Shown here: positions 380-19,360 of the stretch, piece by piece
Layout of the letters: each line of letters begins with the position of its first letter
Numbering within the stretch: the first letter of the stretch is position 1
Assembly (NCBI RefSeq): GCF_963678835.1
Contig: NZ_OY787469.1
Coordinates: 1,426,001 to 1,490,000, forward strand
Reading direction: 5' to 3'
Source: an uncultured Desulfuromonas sp.
GTDB lineage: Bacteria; Desulfobacterota; Desulfuromonadia; Desulfuromonadales; Desulfuromonadaceae
DNA: 64,000 nt
Made by a program: the position numbers and the translations under genes
Notes under the pieces: model-generated
Told to the model about the DNA's origin: nothing
The model's input: the letters and a program-made list of their open reading frames with translations, nothing else
Database searches by the model: none

Positions 380-3097
380 CTACTGGAAAAATTGTTTCTC
401 GAAGAATTCTGCCGTACAGGGTTTCCCGTAAAAGTAACCCTGCACCTGCTGACAGCGATGTTGTTTGAGAAAGTCGACCTGGGCCTGCTCTTCCACCCCT
501 TCAGCGATTACCTCCATGTTGAGGTTGCGTCCAAGAGAGATGATGGAGGCGGCGATGGCGACATCATCGGAATCACCGGGGATATCTTTGACAAATGAGC
601 GGTCGATTTTAAGGTAGCGCGCCGGGAAATTTTTGACATAGCTCAGTGAGGAGTAGCCGGTGCCGAAGTCGTCAATGGCAATGCTGACGCCCAATGCGGT
701 GAGCTGTGTCATGATGGCAATGGCGGATGTGGTATCGCTCATAACGGCATTTTCGGTGACCTCCAGAGTCAGACATTCCGCAGGCAGTCCGGTGTTGTTC
801 AGAACGTCTTTCACCCGTTGAACCAGTTTCTGGTCTTTGGCGAACTGGTTGGATGAGAGGTTTACGGACATTTTGAAATTATGGCCACTCTGTTCGCGCC
901 ATTGATTGGCCTGTCGGCAGGCGGCCTTGAGAACCCAGTGGTCAATTTGAGTGATCAGGCCCGACTCTTCGGCAATGGGGATGAATTCATCCGGATACAC
1001 CAGTTGACCTTCCGGTTTCTGCCAGCGGATCAAGGCCTCTGCACCAACGACCTGCTCGTTTTCCAGATCCACCTGTGGCTGATAAAACAGGACGAACTCA
1101 TTATGGTGTAGAGCGTCACTGAGCCGGGATTCGAGTTCAATTCTCTGCATGATGGTTTCTTGCATGGCGGTGGTAAACAGTTGGTAACCGTTTTTGCCTG
1201 CCTCCTTGGCACGGTACATGGCAATGTCGGCATTTTTGATTAAATCTTCCGGGGTGTCGGCATCATTGGGGAACACTGTGACCCCCATACTGACATTCAC
1301 CGTGTAGTCGCGCCCTGACAGGGAGTGTGGCAGCTCCAGATGTTTGAGGATCCGTCGACACAGGACCGTGATGTCGTGCGGGTCCTCAATCTCGGGCATG
1401 AGAATGATAAATTCATCACCGCCAAGTCGAGCGGTGGTATCTTCCTGGCGTGTGCAACTGAGCAGACGTTCGCTGATCTGCTGAAGAAGTTTGTCGCCAT
1501 AATGGTGGCCGAGCGAGTCGTTGATATTTTTAAAGTTGTCGATGTCGAGATAGATGATAGCCAGTTTGGTGGCATGCTGCCGAGCATGGGCAACCGCAAC
1601 ACTTAACCGGTCATGAAACAGTTTGCGATTGGGAAGGCAGGTTAAGGCGTCATGATAGGCCTGATGCTCAAGCTTTTCCTCGCTGCGTTTGATTTCCGAA
1701 ATATCGTGAAAAATCGCCACGTAATGGCTGGGTACTCCGGCAGAATTGGTACAGCGTGAGATGGAGACATTTAACGGATAGACTTCGCCGTTTTTTCGCC
1801 GGTTCCACACTTCTCCTTCCCACCGTCCTCCTTCGGTCAGCCCCTGCCACATCTGTTGATAGAATGTGGGGCCATGATGATCCGATTTGAAAATACGCGG
1901 AGTTTCGCCGATCAGTTCTTCGCGGCGGTAACCCGACATGGCTTCACAGGCCGGGTTGACCTGTTCAATGATGCCGTCAAGGTTGGTGATGACAATGCCT
2001 TCAACGGCATTGTCAAATACGCTCGAAGACAACAACAGCTGTTTTTCTGATTCTTTGCGCTGATGGTCAAGGTCAACAATGGAATGACCAAGAATATTGA
2101 ATTCGGAAACCAGAGTCGATTTGTAGCGGACTGGTTCCGTATTGCGAAATGCGGCTTCAGTTATTTGCAGTACAGTATTCAGAGAGCGCTTGGTCAGGTA
2201 GCGAAAGATAATGATGACACCACTGGCGGAAATCAACGTGGCGAAAAAGACCGAGAGAATACCCTGACGTAACGATTCGTTGAGTTGTGCGAGCAGATCG
2301 CCGGAGAGTTTCTGGGTTACCAGCAGCTCGCTGCTCTGATTGTTGATGGTCAGCCGGCTGTTCACATAGAAAAAATCACCGTGTTGCCGGGGTAATCCTT
2401 CCGGGACGAATTTGTCTCCAGAGTGAAGCGGGGCCATTGCGCTTCTGTCATGGCCTAACACCGGCTGATTGTTCCACTGCAGGCTGATGGCTTCAGCCGT
2501 GATCCGTTGTTCAAGTTCTTGCAGCAACGCCAGGTTGTCATTGACCACAGTGGCGGCGTAAATGGTACCGATGATTTTGCCTGATGACAGGGCGGTAATT
2601 TTTTCCTGCTGCTTGAGGAGCACTGTATCGGTTTCAGTGCAGTATGTCAGTCCGGGCGGATTGGTCGTTAGCGTATGCTGGAGTTGCGGTGATGCAAAAA
2701 AAGGCGATGTGACGTCAATCGTTGTGCCGTCGTTCAGCTTTAAACAGAGCAGGTCGAGCGCTCCGCCGGGGTCCCGTTCATAAAATGCCATCAGGCTGCG
2801 GGTGATGGCTTGGTGGCTGGCCACAGGGTTAGATTCTGAATCGAGTTTGGCCACGATCTGGGAGGCATTTTTTAAAGCCGTATCCAGTGTTTTGACGTGT
2901 TGTTCAAGCACCGCCTCAATCATGCGCTGATTGTGACGGGCGTTTTTGCGGATTTCGACGACAACTGTTTTGCGATTGTCCAGATAGCTGTACCCGGACA
3001 GGAGAACAATAAATAACACCGCAAACAAAAAGGCGATGGCCATCAGGTACGTGGTCATCTTCAGTGGGCGGGGGCGAAAGATGTAAAAAGGGTTCAT
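380..3097 (-). CDS. Membrane GGDEF-EAL c-di-GMP enzyme with LuxQ-like periplasmic sensor
   Basis: 905 residues. A membrane segment at about 16-38, a periplasmic domain at about 39-280, a second membrane segment at about 281-300, PAS (367-475), GGDEF (480-640) and EAL (660-900). GGDEF is intact at 559-563 with an RxxD inhibitory site at 550-553. EAL is intact at 687-689, with the DDFGTGYSS loop after it, so both synthesis and hydrolysis of c-di-GMP are possible. The periplasmic stretch at 171-200 (SSGKIIGT then VVNDNLALLQEL) and that at 100-120 (FYERD then LDLLCLKL) resemble the periplasmic domain of Vibrio LuxQ as I recall it. The start overlaps the stop of the upstream LuxP-like gene in an ATGA, which points to coupled translation. 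Inferred role: binds the LuxP-like protein and sets c-di-GMP level. Domain calls are firm; the LuxQ relation is from memory. Confidence 0.9.
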   Translation of the reverse strand: MNPFYIFRPRPLKMTTYLMAIAFLFAVLFIVLLSGYSYLDNRKTVVVEIRKNARHNQRMIEAVLEQHVKTLDTALKNASQIVAKLDSESNPVASHQAITRSLMAFYERDPGGALDLLCLKLNDGTTIDVTSPFFASPQLQHTLTTNPPGLTYCTETDTVLLKQQEKITALSSGKIIGTIYAATVVNDNLALLQELEQRITAEAISLQWNNQPVLGHDRSAMAPLHSGDKFVPEGLPRQHGDFFYVNSRLTINNQSSELLVTQKLSGDLLAQLNESLRQGILSVFFATLISASGVIIIFRYLTKRSLNTVLQITEAAFRNTEPVRYKSTLVSEFNILGHSIVDLDHQRKESEKQLLLSSSVFDNAVEGIVITNLDGIIEQVNPACEAMSGYRREELIGETPRIFKSDHHGPTFYQQMWQGLTEGGRWEGEVWNRRKNGEVYPLNVSISRCTNSAGVPSHYVAIFHDISEIKRSEEKLEHQAYHDALTCLPNRKLFHDRLSVAVAHARQHATKLAIIYLDIDNFKNINDSLGHHYGDKLLQQISERLLSCTRQEDTTARLGGDEFIILMPEIEDPHDITVLCRRILKHLELPHSLSGRDYTVNVSMGVTVFPNDADTPEDLIKNADIAMYRAKEAGKNGYQLFTTAMQETIMQRIELESRLSDALHHNEFVLFYQPQVDLENEQVVGAEALIRWQKPEGQLVYPDEFIPIAEESGLITQIDHWVLKAACRQANQWREQSGHNFKMSVNLSSNQFAKDQKLVQRVKDVLNNTGLPAECLTLEVTENAVMSDTTSAIAIMTQLTALGVSIAIDDFGTGYSSLSYVKNFPARYLKIDRSFVKDIPGDSDDVAIAASIISLGRNLNMEVIAEGVEEQAQVDFLKQHRCQQVQGYFYGKPCTAEFFEKQFFQ

Positions 3098-4149
3098 TGC
3101 GCCTCCGAGTAGCGAAACGCCTGTTTCTTGAGATCCTCAATCTGACACAAGTTTGCGGCGGAGAGAAGTTTCATATTCCCGCAGAATAGCTGAGGAATCT
3201 GTTGCTGTCGATCTTCAAGTACAAATTTAATCGCTTCGGCAATGGAAACGCCGCTATCGTCGTTCATGCGCATCACCGTTAACGCAAGGTCGCCTTGTTG
3301 CAGTGCTTCGAGTTCCTTATCTCCTCCTCCCCAGCCATTGATGGAGATGGCTTTTTTTCGGCCGAGATCTTTCAGTGCCCGGCTGGTGTTTAATGCGATA
3401 TCCGTCGTGGTGCAAAAAATGAAGTCCACCTGGTTGTCGCTGTTAATGATGTCGCTGGCGGCCTGATAAATTCTGTTCGGTGTCTGGTCGGTAAAAAACT
3501 CCACCACGGGCAGCGAAGCGTGGCGATCCTTCGCAACCTGAAGAAACCCTTGTGTTCTGAGTTTGCTAACCTGACCACGGGTGCCACAGATGATGGCATA
3601 ACGTGCGTCATTGCCGTAGGTGTCAAACAGATGGGTTGCCAGCAACCGTGAGCCTTCTTCATGGTCGAAGCCGGTGTACAGCAGTGGCGGATAGTCCTGC
3701 CACTGGCTGTTGGGGATGGTCTGGTTCGCGACAATGATTTTCGGCGTACCACGATAAAGAACGCGGCCCAGTAACTTTCTGATGCGGGGGGAATCAATGT
3801 TGATCACCAGAAAATCCGGTTTTAGCTTTAATGCTTCGGCCAGTTGGTGTTCCTGGAGTCGGGTTTGACGCGGTTGGCTTGAAAAATGGGTCCATTTATA
3901 ACGAATGTTCAGTTCTTTAAGGCGTGCCGTCATGCTAACCAGGTTACGTCGCCAGTAATCGGACGCTTGTTGGTCTGGATAAATGGTGATGATTTTTACC
4001 GGCTTATGGAGACCCCCCTGAAAAATGACCGGGGCTGTTGCAACGCTTTGCGAGAACGCCAAAGCGTCAGCCGCCTGGGCTGTACAGGTGAGGTTCCACA
4101 GCAACAGTAGTATCAGAATTGTTTTTATGGCAGGAAGTCTTCGATCCAT
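3094..4149 (-). CDS. luxP: LuxP-like periplasmic AI-2-binding protein
   Basis: 351 residues with an N-terminal signal peptide (hydrophobic 9-20, cleavage near AQA-AD at 26). The body is a periplasmic sugar-binding-protein fold that matches Vibrio LuxP closely by memory: YPDQQASDYW, a GFDHEEGSRLLAT stretch, NGWGGG, TVMRMNDD, and the C-terminus KKQAFRYS. Residues equivalent to the recalled LuxP contacts for AI-2 are all present: Gln61, Ser63, Trp66, Asn142, Arg198, Thr249, Asp250, Trp273, Arg294, at a constant offset of 16-17 from LuxP numbering. I chose the ATG at 4149 because longer starts lie inside the hairpin at 4240-4296. A weak promoter (TTCATT, 18 bp, TATAAC) lies at 4196-4225. It is the first gene of a two-gene unit with the GGDEF-EAL protein. 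Confidence 0.88.
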   Translation of the reverse strand: MDRRLPAIKTILILLLLWNLTCTAQAADALAFSQSVATAPVIFQGGLHKPVKIITIYPDQQASDYWRRNLVSMTARLKELNIRYKWTHFSSQPRQTRLQEHQLAEALKLKPDFLVINIDSPRIRKLLGRVLYRGTPKIIVANQTIPNSQWQDYPPLLYTGFDHEEGSRLLATHLFDTYGNDARYAIICGTRGQVSKLRTQGFLQVAKDRHASLPVVEFFTDQTPNRIYQAASDIINSDNQVDFIFCTTTDIALNTSRALKDLGRKKAISINGWGGGDKELEALQQGDLALTVMRMNDDSGVSIAEAIKFVLEDRQQQIPQLFCGNMKLLSAANLCQIEDLKKQAFRYSEAQ

Positions 4150-4239
4150 CCACCAGATTGTAGCTTGATCAATGAAGAAAAAAAAGAGAAAAAGAGTTAT
4201 AGATAAGGAAAGCCTATTTAATGAATTTGTGTTTTCGAG

Positions 4240-4296
4240 CCAGCACAATCCATCGCGGGGCCGATTGCTATGTCGGCCCGCGATGGATTGTGCTGG
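4240..4296 (-). terminator. Long hairpin after the octaheme cytochrome gene
   Basis: A 24-bp stem (CCAGCACAATCCATCGCGG and beyond) with one bulged G and an 8-nt loop begins two bases after the cytochrome stop codon on the minus strand. No clear U-run follows, so it may act as an mRNA 3' stabiliser or a Rho-assisted terminator separating the cytochrome gene from luxP. Confidence 0.65.
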
Positions 4297-4298
4297 GG

Positions 4299-5813
4299 CT
4301 ATTTCTTTTCCTGCCCGGCGCGCAGGAATTTCAGATAATCAGCCATTTCCTGCAGATTTTTTGCCTGGGTCCAGCGTCCATCGGCAAATACCCCGTAATC
4401 AACACCACCCATCGCTGTGGCAAAACGGACCGAGTTGCCGAAGAACAGCCACTGCTCGATCCACTTTATTTCGATCGCTTCATCAAACGGGTTGGCTCCC
4501 TGGGGAAGGCCTTGGGCCAGACCTTCTTCCCAGGCGGTGTTGAGAACCTTGGTTGCCTGAAGTGTCATATGATTTGACGTTTCAATGGCGCGATCCAGGC
4601 GGTCAAAGTGGCCATTCACCCATTGCTGTGCATGGCAACCTGAGCAGACGTTTTTCATGTTGGTGGTGCGCACCGCCATCTCGTCAGCAGAGATCAGGGC
4701 AGATGTTACCGGTTCGCCGCTCAGCTCAGTCGGCAGAGTCAGGCCAGCTTTGTTGACAATGGTGGAGGTGTCGGCGTGGATGGGGTGCGGGTGCGCATAA
4801 GGCAGACCGAAAATACGCCACGGCAACCGGTCGGTCATGCGGTGGGAACGTTTGGCAAGCAGCTCTCCATCGCTGTTGACCAGTTCACTGACATGGCAGG
4901 CCGCACAGGTCGGAGCGGTAAAGTCTTCACCGACGGTCCAGGGAACGGCTTTGTAATCCCAGTATTTGTCGACGGATTTCTGAATATTGCCGTGGACGCT
5001 GACGGAATAGACTTTATACGCCGGGACATCCGGGCCTTTGTGGCATTCGGCACAGGTGTAGGGTTTGCGCGCGACTTCAATCGAAAATTGATGACGCATA
5101 TGGCAGGAGGCACAGGCCCCTTTGCTGCCATCCGGGTTGATGCGGCCAACCCCGGCATTGGGCCAGTTGCTTAACGTCGGGAAGTCCATTTCCCCCATAT
5201 CGGTTTCACGCGATTCGCTGCCGGTTACTTGAACAATGGTACCGTGACAGGCCAGACAGGAGTCGGCGTTGCTCATGTCATCAGCGCCTTCATGATGAAA
5301 GCTGGCTCCGTTGAAGGTGGCGAGACCATTGGTATTATCGACCATCACCTTATAAACGGGATTATCCATCAGGTTGGCATATGCCTGGGACATCAGGTTG
5401 TGGGAGAAGTCTTCCACTTCCACCGGATGGCAGGTGGCACAATCACTCGGGGAGACCACGGTGTGAATGACGAAACCATTGTGTTCAAAACGGTCTTTTT
5501 CGTGCTGGTCCGCATTCATGGTATGACATTCGGCGCAACCGATCACCACTGTGCGAAGCGTTTCGTCAACTTGGGATGTTGACATGCGTCGTTCGATCTC
5601 CGGCAAGGCAAAAGCGTCTTGTGGTGTCGTGTGAGAGTGACGGCTTTTTTGCCAGTCCGCAACGATCCCCGGTGTCACGGTGGTGTGGCAGTCGAGACAT
5701 TCCTGAGTGTTGTCACTGATAACACCCTGTTCAGCAAACGTTGTTGTGGTGGTTACCACAACCAGCAGCACTACCAGTATGATTGTGTAACGCGATCCTA
5801 ACAGATGATTCAT
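4299..5813 (-). CDS. Octaheme cytochrome c, hydroxylamine oxidoreductase-like
   Basis: 504 residues with an N-terminal signal or anchor segment (10-27). Eight CxxCH heme-binding motifs start at Cys39, 93, 125, 186, 234, 254, 303 and 390. The stretch around hemes 5-6 (CHMRHQFSIEVARKPYTC, then GPD and HGN) follows the pattern of the HAO/octaheme family. Such proteins oxidise or reduce nitrogen compounds (hydroxylamine, nitrite) in the periplasm; in anaerobic delta-proteobacteria a reductive role is more likely, which is inference. I cannot tell whether the crosslinking tyrosine of ammonia-oxidiser HAO is present. Start chosen at 5813 because a strong GGGAGGGG ribosome site precedes it. ResB/CcsB further along would supply heme attachment. 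Monocistronic. Confidence 0.88.
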   Translation of the reverse strand: MNHLLGSRYTIILVVLLVVVTTTTTFAEQGVISDNTQECLDCHTTVTPGIVADWQKSRHSHTTPQDAFALPEIERRMSTSQVDETLRTVVIGCAECHTMNADQHEKDRFEHNGFVIHTVVSPSDCATCHPVEVEDFSHNLMSQAYANLMDNPVYKVMVDNTNGLATFNGASFHHEGADDMSNADSCLACHGTIVQVTGSESRETDMGEMDFPTLSNWPNAGVGRINPDGSKGACASCHMRHQFSIEVARKPYTCAECHKGPDVPAYKVYSVSVHGNIQKSVDKYWDYKAVPWTVGEDFTAPTCAACHVSELVNSDGELLAKRSHRMTDRLPWRIFGLPYAHPHPIHADTSTIVNKAGLTLPTELSGEPVTSALISADEMAVRTTNMKNVCSGCHAQQWVNGHFDRLDRAIETSNHMTLQATKVLNTAWEEGLAQGLPQGANPFDEAIEIKWIEQWLFFGNSVRFATAMGGVDYGVFADGRWTQAKNLQEMADYLKFLRAGQEKK

Positions 5814-6055
5814 GATCCCCTCCCTATACAGGTTATAAAAATTAATAAAAGAACACGTCACCCCTTTGAGTTTTGTGTTTTCTTTAATATATAGGGGTCG
5901 GGCGTGGGAAGGAAGGTCAAAAATGAATCTAATTTTCCCGTTTTAGAATGTCTAAAGTGGGTCTTGTCAGCATAAATTGGTCTGCTAAGCTGTAACATGG
6001 TCAATTTGTTTTCGTTTATATGCTCAGACCTCTGTGATGTGGAGTCTTTTTGCCT

Positions 6056-8254
6056 ATGTTGTCTTTCTTTCGTCGCCAGATTTCGCTAAAGGTTGTGTTA
6101 CCGCTGATTGCGGTGTTGGCGGTGCTGATGGTTGTTTTTGGTGTTTATGTTGTCCGCGAACGCACCCAGGCTGTTGAACGTCTTCTGCTGACGAAAGCGC
6201 GCAATCTGGTTCTGGTGGGGGCGACAACCATGGAGATGCTTCTTACCGAAGCGGTTAAAAACGGCGAATTGACCCATGACGAATTGTTTGATACCGCTTA
6301 TCAGCCGATTACGGAAGGACCTTTGTCCGGCACCGATCCGCCTAAGTTTCATACCCGCTATGATCGCTATTTTGATAACCACTTTCAGGAGCTGTTTGAT
6401 CGCTTTGCCATGGAAGACCCTTCGGTGGTGTTTGCCCTTCTGGCTGACCGCAATGGCTATGTGCCGACCCACAACCAACGTTATTCGCAACCTCTCACCG
6501 GTGACGTGATCCATGACCGCAATAATAATCGCACCAAGCGGATTTTCGACGATCCGGTGGGATTGAAAGCGGTGCGCTTTCTCGGCAATGACCAGCAATC
6601 GGTGTTGCGGCAAATCTATGAGCGCGACACCGGAGAAGTGATGTGGGATCTTTCCGCGCCGGTGATTGTTGACGGACAGCATTGGGGCGCGTTTCGCCTG
6701 GGTTTGTTATTGGCGGAGACGGAACACTCCATTATCCGCATGCGTAAAACGATCTTTATCTCAACGCTGCTGATGTTGCTGGTGTCGTCTTTGACTATTG
6801 TGCTGGTGGTGCGGCGCATTCTGCAACCGTTGTTGAGTATGACCCAGAGTGTTGAGCACCTTGCCGATGGCAAGATTTATCAGGGGTTCCAGATGGATTC
6901 CAATGATGAGATCGGCAAGCTGATCAAGGCGTTTAACAAAATGTCGAGCCAGTTGCAGCAAACAACCGTGTCGCGCGATTACTACGATTGCATTGTTGAG
7001 TCGATGCGTGAAGCGATGATGATTATCTCCAGTGAAGGGCTGATTAAGAGCGCCAACCAGTCTACCTGCGCGTTATTGGGTTACAGCTGTGAAGAGTTGG
7101 TGGACCAACCGGTCGAGATGATTTTGCCGAGCAACTGGCAAAAAGGGGCATTCAATATCAACGATTTCAGCAAGCCCACTCTGCTGATGGATAAGAAAGA
7201 TCGGGGATGTTTCTTTCTTATCGCCAAAAGCGGAAAAAAAATAGCGGTTTCTCTGTCAAGCTCGCCAATGCTGGATGATGACGGCGGTGTCTTGTCGTTA
7301 ATCTGGGTCGCTCAGGACATTACGCAACGTCGTGAGATGGAGCGCCGTTTGCAACAGGCGTTTGAAGAGTCCTGGGCCATGGCGGAGAATCTTGAGGAGC
7401 AAAATCTTGTCTTATCCAAAAGTCAGCAGAAGCTCGAAGAGGCTTATGCGGAGCTGAAAGCCTCTCAATTGATCATCCTCCAACAGGAAAAGATGGCTTC
7501 AGTCGGTTTGCTGGCTGCCGGTATGGCCCATGAAGTTAACAATCCGATCGGCTTTATCAACAGCAACCTGAATTCGTTGAAAAAATACCTCGAAAAAATG
7601 TTGTCTTTTATTGAAGCTCAGGAAAAGGCATTGAACGAATTTCCCGACAGTGAGGGGAAACAGGAAGTGGCTGTGCTGCGCAAAAAACTCAAACTCGACT
7701 TTTTGCTTGAGGATTGTCGTGAATTGATTGATGAGTCACTCAATGGTGCTGAGCGAGTGCGCAATCTGGTGCAGAATCTGAAAACGTTTTCGCGTGCTGA
7801 TCAGGCCGAAGAGGCCAAAGTTGATTTGAATGATTGCCTGGAGAGCACCATCAGCATTATCTGGAATGAACTGAAATACAAGGTCACTCTCAATCGCGAT
7901 TATGGTGAACTGCCTCTGACCTTGTGTTACGGACAAAAAATGAATCAGGTGTTTATGAATATCCTTGTCAATGCGGCGCATTCCATTGACAAGCAAGGGG
8001 AAATTACCATCAAGACCCGTCATGAAGATGAGCATATCCGTATCTGGATAACCGACACCGGGTGTGGCATTCCTGAAGAGAATCTCAAAAAGATCTTTGA
8101 ACCGTTCTATACCACCAAAGAGGTCGGGACCGGCACAGGTTTGGGCATGAGTATCGCCTATGAAATTATTGAGCAGCACCAAGGCAAAATCTATGTGACC
8201 AGTGAGGTGGGGGTCGGCACCACCTTTATGATTGATCTGCCGGTGGTTGAGTAG
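6056..8254 (+). CDS. Membrane sensor histidine kinase (Cache-like, HAMP, PAS)
   Basis: 732 residues. A membrane segment near 14-32, a periplasmic Cache-like domain up to about 225 with the run HNQRYSQPLTGD and NRTKRIFDDP typical of sensors and chemoreceptors, a second membrane segment at about 230-252, HAMP (255-305), PAS (315-430), a short coiled coil, then the HisKA region with phospho-accepting His492 in GMAHEVNNP and a HATPase domain (NAAHSI, DTGCGIP, GTGTGLGMS). It autophosphorylates and passes phosphate to a response regulator; none is adjacent, so the partner is unknown. ATG at 6056 chosen with GGAG 11 bases upstream; TTG at 6050 is an alternative. Divergent from the cytochrome gene. 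Confidence 0.92.
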   Translation: MLSFFRRQISLKVVLPLIAVLAVLMVVFGVYVVRERTQAVERLLLTKARNLVLVGATTMEMLLTEAVKNGELTHDELFDTAYQPITEGPLSGTDPPKFHTRYDRYFDNHFQELFDRFAMEDPSVVFALLADRNGYVPTHNQRYSQPLTGDVIHDRNNNRTKRIFDDPVGLKAVRFLGNDQQSVLRQIYERDTGEVMWDLSAPVIVDGQHWGAFRLGLLLAETEHSIIRMRKTIFISTLLMLLVSSLTIVLVVRRILQPLLSMTQSVEHLADGKIYQGFQMDSNDEIGKLIKAFNKMSSQLQQTTVSRDYYDCIVESMREAMMIISSEGLIKSANQSTCALLGYSCEELVDQPVEMILPSNWQKGAFNINDFSKPTLLMDKKDRGCFFLIAKSGKKIAVSLSSSPMLDDDGGVLSLIWVAQDITQRREMERRLQQAFEESWAMAENLEEQNLVLSKSQQKLEEAYAELKASQLIILQQEKMASVGLLAAGMAHEVNNPIGFINSNLNSLKKYLEKMLSFIEAQEKALNEFPDSEGKQEVAVLRKKLKLDFLLEDCRELIDESLNGAERVRNLVQNLKTFSRADQAEEAKVDLNDCLESTISIIWNELKYKVTLNRDYGELPLTLCYGQKMNQVFMNILVNAAHSIDKQGEITIKTRHEDEHIRIWITDTGCGIPEENLKKIFEPFYTTKEVGTGTGLGMSIAYEIIEQHQGKIYVTSEVGVGTTFMIDLPVVE

Positions 8255-19243: not shown

Positions 19244-19261
19244 CAAACACCAAAAAGGTGT

Positions 19262-19360
19262 TGTCAGGTCGCTTCCCTACGCCGGTATCATCCGGATCAG
19301 GTTCCAAGGGTCGCTCCGATCTAACAGAGCTCTCAGTGAATCACTCCCCCAGCAGCCATC
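19262..19360 (-). promoter_or_regulatory. TPP riboswitch (THI element)
   Basis: Minus-strand sequence shows the conserved parts in order: GGGGGAGT, CTGAGAG, ACCCTTGGAACCTGATC, CCGGATGATACCGG and CGTAGGGAAG. It lies between the promoter at 19399-19427 and the terminator before thiED, and should reduce expression of thiED-thiC when thiamine pyrophosphate is abundant. Confidence 0.97.

What the first reader, a model, noticed from the sequence alone, without database searches (positions are those of the whole stretch)
380..4149. LuxPQ-like sensing wired directly to a c-di-GMP synthase/hydrolase
The gene translationally coupled (ATGA) to luxP is not a LuxQ kinase but a PAS-GGDEF-EAL protein whose periplasmic region looks like that of LuxQ (the stretch with SSGKIIGT and VVNDNLALLQEL against STGEVLGF and VVLDNNFALMEKL in LuxQ, from memory). 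Both GGDEF and EAL motifs are intact. This would turn a quorum or interspecies signal into c-di-GMP in one step, bypassing LuxU/LuxO. This is the best candidate for an undescribed system in the window; similar pairs may already exist in databases.
Basis: partly seen in the sequence, partly recalled or inferred. Interest (0 to 1): 0.85.

Follow-up and report, generated by a model that had tools for sequence, protein, structure and literature searches.

The report
AI-2-type receptor wired to c-di-GMP enzyme

Summary
Window 3094-4149 (-) encodes a LuxP relative (best solved structures V. harveyi LuxP, E 1e-71). It overlaps by ATGA a 905-residue protein (380-3097, -) with a LuxQ-periplasm domain over Pfam's cut-off, a PAS domain, and intact GGDEF and EAL domains. 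The model of the periplasmic part matches LuxQ best. Nine of nine recalled AI-2 contact residues are kept.

The pair is not a one-off. Of 277 genomes of the class, five of one genus carry LuxP; the same five carry a long LuxQ-periplasm match, always adjacent. Of the 80 nearest LuxP loci returned from public genomes, 22 have a GGDEF-EAL partner (three phyla), 41 a kinase, 1 SpoIIE, 7 no output found, 9 unresolved. LuxQ-type domains also pair with TctC-like binding proteins; the LuxP-linked domains form a separate group whatever their output.

The five Desulfuromonas-type genomes have no luxS match, so if AI-2 is the ligand they only listen. Ligand, docking and c-di-GMP response are inferred, not shown. 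A 2008 paper noticed this operon in D. acetoxidans but called the partner a transcriptional regulator; direct AI-2-to-c-di-GMP receptors and NspS-MbaA are known. Verdict: a new, fairly widespread variant of a known kind.

The parts
3094..4149 (-). luxP-like periplasmic binding protein, 351 aa, signal-peptide-like start (by eye), Peripla_BP_4
   Evidence: Pfam PF13407 79.6 bits; PDB LuxP E 1e-71, next protein 3.6e-9; nine recalled AI-2 contact residues kept
380..3097 (-). membrane protein LuxQ-periplasm - PAS - GGDEF - EAL, 905 aa, predicted c-di-GMP synthase/phosphodiesterase
   Evidence: Pfam; NCBIfam nearest DibA phosphodiesterase over residues 342-898, 679.7 bits, below its cut-off 980; catalytic residues
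2324..2962 (-). LuxQ-periplasm domain (residues 46-258), between two membrane helices (about 17-35 and 280-298 in the close homologues L038 and L039)
   Evidence: PDB profile searches; AF2 model and fold search; hydropathy of homologues
1694..2023 (-). PAS domain (residues 359-468)
1190..1660 (-). GGDEF domain (residues 480-636), motif and I-site intact
419..1126 (-). EAL domain (residues 658-893), catalytic residues intact
3094..3097 (-). ATGA start/stop overlap, the same four letters in all five genomes of the genus that carry the pair
4241..4295 (.). inverted repeat (arms 4241-4264 and 4273-4295, by eye) between the upstream cytochrome gene and luxP; possible end of the upstream transcript
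   Evidence: kept with changes in L039, a gap there in the other three relatives

Best explanation
The two genes make a LuxPQ-like two-protein receptor with a c-di-GMP output. LuxP in the periplasm binds AI-2 or a close chemical relative (inferred from the kept pocket). It docks on the LuxQ-type double-Cache domain of its membrane partner (inferred from homology, gene linkage and the sensor-domain tree). Ligand-driven closure of LuxP changes the dimer and so the balance between the GGDEF cyclase and the EAL phosphodiesterase (inferred). No LuxU/LuxO phosphorelay would be needed. My guess for the sign, at about 55%, is that the ligand breaks a symmetric dimer, lowers cyclase activity and lets the phosphodiesterase win, lowering c-di-GMP. 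Since no luxS was found in this genome, the cell would be a listener to other species rather than a self-signaller.
For: LuxP identity. PF09308 over cut-off and at one place in the genome. LuxQ-only PDB matches up to E 1 from the five own-genus domains (3c30 1.2e-6, 1zhh_B 2.5e-4, 2hj9_C 5.1e-4); LuxQ first from 16 GGDEF-EAL partners without any kinase (7.3e-28, 9.1e-21, 3.4e-17; then Nup188 at 0.85). AF2 model pLDDT 89.2; the five best Z are all LuxQ (16.0-17.4, rmsd 2.9-3.1), next row 13.7 at rmsd 4.8. Co-occurrence: LuxP (E <= 1e-20) in 5 of 277 class genomes, the same five that have a PF09308 match of 174 or more positions, adjacent with ATGA in 5 of 5. Nine recalled AI-2 contacts kept in 26 of 26 LuxPs with a GGDEF-EAL partner and 83 of 84 in all. 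GG, D, E of the cyclase motif and the EAL catalytic set kept in 26 of 26 partners. In the sensor-domain tree 44 LuxP-linked domains (25 GGDEF-EAL, 19 kinase or SpoIIE) are split by a branch with SH-aLRT 100 from 5 TctC-linked ones. Another study reports AI-2 binding by 3 LuxP proteins from Proteobacteria and Deferribacterota (PMC12268683, section 8 read).
Against: No binding, docking or enzyme data for these proteins. The window domain alone matches LuxQ weakly (E 0.014) and identity is 14-16%. The AF2 alignment contained LuxQ rows. The patterns that gathered the loci contain four of the nine contact residues, so only five of nine are an independent count. LuxQ-periplasm does not prove a LuxP partner: in 244 genomes of a gammaproteobacterial order, of 15 PF09308 matches 9 have a LuxP-like gene beside them and 6 do not; of the seven matches there in GGDEF-EAL proteins only one is beside LuxP, and five of the others follow TctC-like genes. 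The domain lacks a Pfam match over cut-off in 2 of 9 GGDEF-EAL partners scanned. Absence of luxS leaves the AI-2 source, and so the ligand, open.
Confidence: 0.74

Rival explanations
1. Same two-protein receptor, but LuxP binds something other than AI-2, such as a sugar or another diol-borate, so it is nutrient sensing wired to c-di-GMP.
For: No luxS in the genome or its four relatives and in 12 of 21 other genomes with a GGDEF-EAL pair. LuxP belongs to the sugar-binding Peripla_BP_4 fold.
Against: Nine recalled AI-2 contacts kept in 26 of 26. In the nearest non-LuxP structure aligned (5xsd) the residues at W273 and R294 differ. LuxP proteins of two phyla reported to bind AI-2 (PMC12268683).
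Confidence: 0.2
2. The GGDEF-EAL protein senses a small molecule directly with its double-Cache domain, and LuxP is a neighbour that serves transport or something else.
For: The fold is a double Cache, and Cache domains of other proteins bind AI-2 directly (PMC7584622, passages seen). PMC12268683 writes of LuxP as serving transport into the cell (passages).
Against: The sensor-domain tree follows the binding protein. The linkage is kept across phyla. No gene lies between the two. The neighbours were not all identified, so a nearby transporter is not excluded; the gene on the far side of the pair in relatives looks like an ABC-type ATPase on the other strand (by eye).
Confidence: 0.1
3. A constitutive c-di-GMP phosphodiesterase that kept a sensor-like domain by descent.
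For: Nearest named relative of the cytoplasmic half is the phosphodiesterase DibA, below its cut-off. Some relatives carry the sensor with no output domain found.
Against: Open frames, overlap and catalytic residues kept in the window and four relatives with 55-87% identical LuxP.
Confidence: 0.04

Closest known systems
LuxPQ of Vibrio (AI-2 receptor)
   Same: LuxP with the same contact residues; LuxQ-type periplasmic domain; luxP directly before its partner gene, ends touching, also in V. harveyi L055
   Different: Output is PAS-GGDEF-EAL, not a hybrid histidine kinase; no luxS match in this genome
NspS-MbaA (polyamine receptor of V. cholerae; also reported from Sinorhizobium, listing)
   Same: Periplasmic binding protein controlling a bifunctional GGDEF-EAL membrane protein (PMC8967002, passages seen)
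   Different: Senses polyamines through another binding-protein family (recalled); in six Vibrionaceae genomes PF09308 matches one place per genome, so MbaA, if present there, is not recognised as LuxQ-periplasm
[not shown]
   Same: AI-2 to c-di-GMP in one protein (PMC9637222 passages; PMC7584622 passages)
   Different: Bind AI-2 directly without LuxP; other sensor-domain families
AsrK-AsrR of Vibrio furnissii
   Same: AI-2 changes c-di-GMP (PMC11796354, abstract and outline seen)
   Different: dCache kinase and a separate regulator with phosphodiesterase activity; no LuxP
Dace_1280-Dace_1279 operon of Desulfuromonas acetoxidans (Rezzonico and Duffy 2008)
   Same: Very probably the same gene pair in the same genus, luxS reported absent (PMC2561040, section 12 read)
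   Different: There the partner is called a putative transcriptional regulator with PAS domains; c-di-GMP, EAL and diguanylate have 0 occurrences in its main text

Membership tests
LuxP AI-2 binding proteins | Closest relative is LuxP rather than other Peripla_BP_4 proteins | tested here: met
   E 1e-71 to LuxP against 3.6e-9 for the next solved protein
LuxP AI-2 binding proteins | AI-2 contact residues Q77 S79 W82 N159 R215 T266 D267 W289 R310 (list and numbers recalled) | tested here: met
   9 of 9 in the window protein
LuxP AI-2 binding proteins | Binds AI-2 | not testable with these tools
   needs protein
LuxQ | LuxQ-periplasm domain PF09308 | tested here: met
   40.8 bits, cut-off 25.7
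LuxQ | Histidine kinase and receiver domains | tested here: not met
   none among the Pfam matches of P0001 up to E 1; GGDEF and EAL instead
LuxPQ complex | LuxP-LuxQ interface | not testable with these tools
   no co-folding offered
NspS-MbaA | Binding protein plus GGDEF-EAL partner encoded together | tested here: met
NspS-MbaA | Binding protein of the polyamine (PotD-like) family | tested here: not met
   only Peripla_BP_4 matched up to E 1
NspS-MbaA | MbaA-type periplasmic domain | not tested
   no MbaA sequence compared
YeaJ/GAPES1 or dCache_1 (CahR) AI-2 receptors | GAPES1 or dCache_1 profile in the periplasmic part | tested here: not met
   neither listed up to E 1; the fold is nevertheless double Cache
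c-di-GMP enzymes (GGDEF-EAL) | intact catalytic residues | tested here: met
   activity itself not testable here

The most novel reading that the evidence does not exclude
The LuxQ-type periplasmic domain is a general docking receptor for periplasmic binding proteins (LuxP, and separately TctC-type proteins), joined to kinases, a SpoIIE phosphatase or GGDEF-EAL enzymes. Its LuxP/c-di-GMP form is a receiver-side AI-2 pathway in at least three phyla, found mostly in genomes without a luxS match (17 of 26 examined), which use it to eavesdrop on AI-2-making neighbours and switch between surface and free life.
Probability: 0.45. Interest if true: 0.78.

Novelty: new variant of a known kind. Interest (0 to 1): 0.62.

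Why it matters
A recent AI-2 survey treats LuxP as a sensor-only or transport protein (PMC12268683, passages and section 8) and so does not follow its output outside vibrios. If the reading is right, many bacteria without luxS read AI-2 through one protein pair straight into c-di-GMP, the main switch between surface and free life (recalled). In this genus, known for using metals and solid surfaces (recalled), the pair sits beside a multihaem cytochrome gene in all five genomes, which makes a link between neighbour sensing and attachment testable.

Tried and rejected
Considered and rejected: a LuxQ kinase missed by annotation (no kinase domain); chance resemblance in the periplasmic part; a pair unique to this genome; a c-di-GMP riboswitch nearby (at Rfam's gathering scores the window holds only a TPP riboswitch). 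The promoter/terminator scan of 3900-6100 found no more than its shuffles. In one search, 47 of 277 genomes match PF09308; the 42 outside the five have matches of about 29-49 profile positions, five of these genomes pass the cut-off (G007, G106, G167, G175, G219), and I did not examine these proteins further. The PDB search with A3 is circular because A3 holds LuxQ rows; replace it. The cytoplasmic-half tree has weak deep branches, some joining long ones, and is not used. Not done: rooting the LuxP tree, coevolution, co-folding, the second structure job.

Counts and dropped rows. One search returned the best 80 of 243 relatives, so its counts lean towards the query. Of the 80: 22 GGDEF-EAL (L042 is the same place as L037; the L079 gene has a stop upstream of its called frame), 41 kinase (in L098, L107 and L115 the kinase lies in a second frame), 1 SpoIIE, 7 no output found (L048, L059, L103 by Pfam; L053, L061, L070, L078 only by phmmer with six query domains), 9 unresolved (L058, L063, L074, L080, L081, L088, L089, L096, L100), recount. 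In one search I labelled L074 as kinase although its kinase part was not seen, and 8 of 84 rows had no label. One search covered 50 of the 80 loci plus four own-genus genomes. The tree used 25 of 26 GGDEF-EAL partners (L079 left out), 19 of 42 kinase or SpoIIE partners, and 5 TctC-linked proteins. A3 used 38 domains, A5 16.
Full report
Observation. On the minus strand, window 3094-4149 encodes a 351-residue periplasmic binding protein and 380-3097 a 905-residue protein; stop and start overlap as ATGA. Pfam gives Peripla_BP_4 for the first, and LuxQ-periplasm (46-258, 40.8 bits, cut-off 25.7), PAS, GGDEF and EAL for the second. The finding's central claim is therefore in the sequence, and the test it proposed (PF09308) is passed. 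PF09308 and the LuxP protein each match one place in the genome; LuxS matches none (where the control rings in 5 of 14 known genomes).

Is it LuxP? Against solved structures the first protein finds V. harveyi LuxP at E 1e-71; the next protein is at 3.6e-9. Identity to V. harveyi LuxP is 41%. The nine AI-2 contact residues I recall from the LuxP structure are kept in the window protein, its four relatives and V. harveyi, in 83 of 84 LuxP proteins examined, and in 26 of 26 with a GGDEF-EAL partner. Q77, S79, W82 and R310 lie inside the patterns used to collect the loci, so the independent part is the other five, which are invariant in the 84.

Distribution. Of 277 genomes of the class, 5, all of one genus, have LuxP at E 1e-20 or better. 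The same five have a PF09308 match of 174 or more positions; 42 others have only short matches, five of them over the cut-off. The two genes share ATGA in 5 of 5. A multihaem cytochrome gene lies upstream in all five. A scan of species genomes with the LuxP alignment found 243 relatives and returned the best 80. Their partners: GGDEF-EAL in 22 (Desulfuromonas, Deferribacterales, Denitrovibrio, Stappia/Labrenzia/Roseibium, Marinobacterium/Neptuniibacter, Zobellella/Oceanisphaera), kinases in 41, SpoIIE in 1, no output domain found in 7, unresolved 9. Of nine GGDEF-EAL partners given to Pfam, seven pass the PF09308 cut-off; L040 is below it and L079 has none in its called frame.

Results that cut the other way. 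In 244 genomes drawn from the order of a Marinobacterium, 13 genomes hold 15 PF09308 matches; 9 have a LuxP-like gene beside them and 6 do not. Of the seven matches in GGDEF-EAL proteins there, only L122 (the same place as L043) is beside LuxP. Five of the other six follow one to three TctC-like binding proteins (TctC confirmed by Pfam in L135 and L141); the gene before L125 was not identified. The LuxQ-type domain with GGDEF-EAL is thus not tied to LuxP alone.

Sensor follows binding protein. On the LuxP tree (quick, 84 rows) the GGDEF-EAL label needs at least 6 changes, 2 forced by well-supported branches; the root is not known. On the sensor-domain tree (quick, 49 rows) 44 LuxP-linked domains, 25 with GGDEF-EAL and 19 with kinase or SpoIIE outputs, are separated by a long branch with SH-aLRT 100 from the 5 TctC-linked domains, although those too carry GGDEF-EAL. 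Marinobacterium and Neptuniibacter domains beside LuxP fall on the LuxP side. The window's sensor lies with the LuxP-linked ones. This is the strongest indirect evidence for docking to LuxP.

Output. The G, G, D and E of the cyclase motif and the EAL catalytic set are kept in 26 of 26 partners, a metal-binding aspartate of the cyclase in 24 of 26; the I-site arginine in 13 and its aspartate in 20 of 26, both present in the window (roles recalled). The cytoplasmic half is nearest to the phosphodiesterase DibA, below that family's cut-off.

Who makes the signal? LuxS has no match in the window's genome or its four relatives, a match in 9 of 21 other genomes with a GGDEF-EAL pair, and in 18 of 29 genomes with other or unresolved partners (several are metagenome assemblies whose completeness is not told). 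In this genus the system would be receiver-only.

Mechanism (inferred). By LuxPQ (recalled), ligand closure of LuxP alters the sensor dimer; by NspS-MbaA, a binding protein can switch a GGDEF-EAL enzyme between synthesis and breakdown (PMC8967002, passages seen). I expect AI-2 to lower c-di-GMP, with little confidence in the sign.

Literature. Rezzonico and Duffy 2008 (PMC2561040, section 12 read) noted the D. acetoxidans pair and one in Neptuniibacter, calling the partners presumed or putative transcriptional regulators with PAS domains. PMC4822843 (passage seen) lists 115 LuxQ-periplasm proteins, 112 HK and 1 GCD. PMC12268683 (passages and section 8) reports AI-2 binding by three LuxPs and treats LuxP as a sensor-only or transport protein. 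In ten searches of the held library I saw no title or abstract start that describes LuxP controlling a GGDEF-EAL partner; one search listed 40 of 186 papers and 10 of 137, and most subscription papers are not held.

Verdict. It is a fairly widespread variant built of known parts, partly noticed before, with ligand, docking and output untested.

Noticed in passing
L135, L136, L137, L141, L142: LuxQ-periplasm GGDEF-EAL proteins preceded by one to three TctC-type binding proteins instead of LuxP; TctC confirmed by Pfam in L135 and L141, by sequence likeness in the rest.
   Followed up: partly
L138 2384-6796, L139 922-5325: A distant LuxP, a partner with only a sub-cut-off LuxQ-periplasm match and no other Pfam match, then a nucleosidase-like gene (Pfam phosphorylase superfamily in L138; likeness to Pfs/MtnN, the step before LuxS, recalled).
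   Followed up: no
L072 7044-9281: LuxP partner with LuxQ-periplasm, PAS and a SpoIIE phosphatase output.
   Followed up: no
L048, L053, L059, L061, L070, L103: In these Oceanimonas and Oceanisphaera loci the LuxP partner stops after the sensor or PAS domains with no output domain found, while L041 (Oceanisphaera arctica) carries GGDEF-EAL.
   Followed up: partly
window 4299-5816 (-): Multihaem cytochrome gene upstream of luxP, kept in the four relatives at 82-94% identity.
   Followed up: partly
window 4150-4220: A pyrimidine-rich block just upstream of luxP looks well kept in the five genomes; possible promoter or leader (by eye).
   Followed up: no
window 6050-8254 (+): HAMP-PAS sensor histidine kinase beside the operon, matched in three of the four relatives (the contig of the fourth ends before it).
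   Followed up: no
window 19257-19360 (-): TPP riboswitch, 67.8 bits.
   Followed up: no
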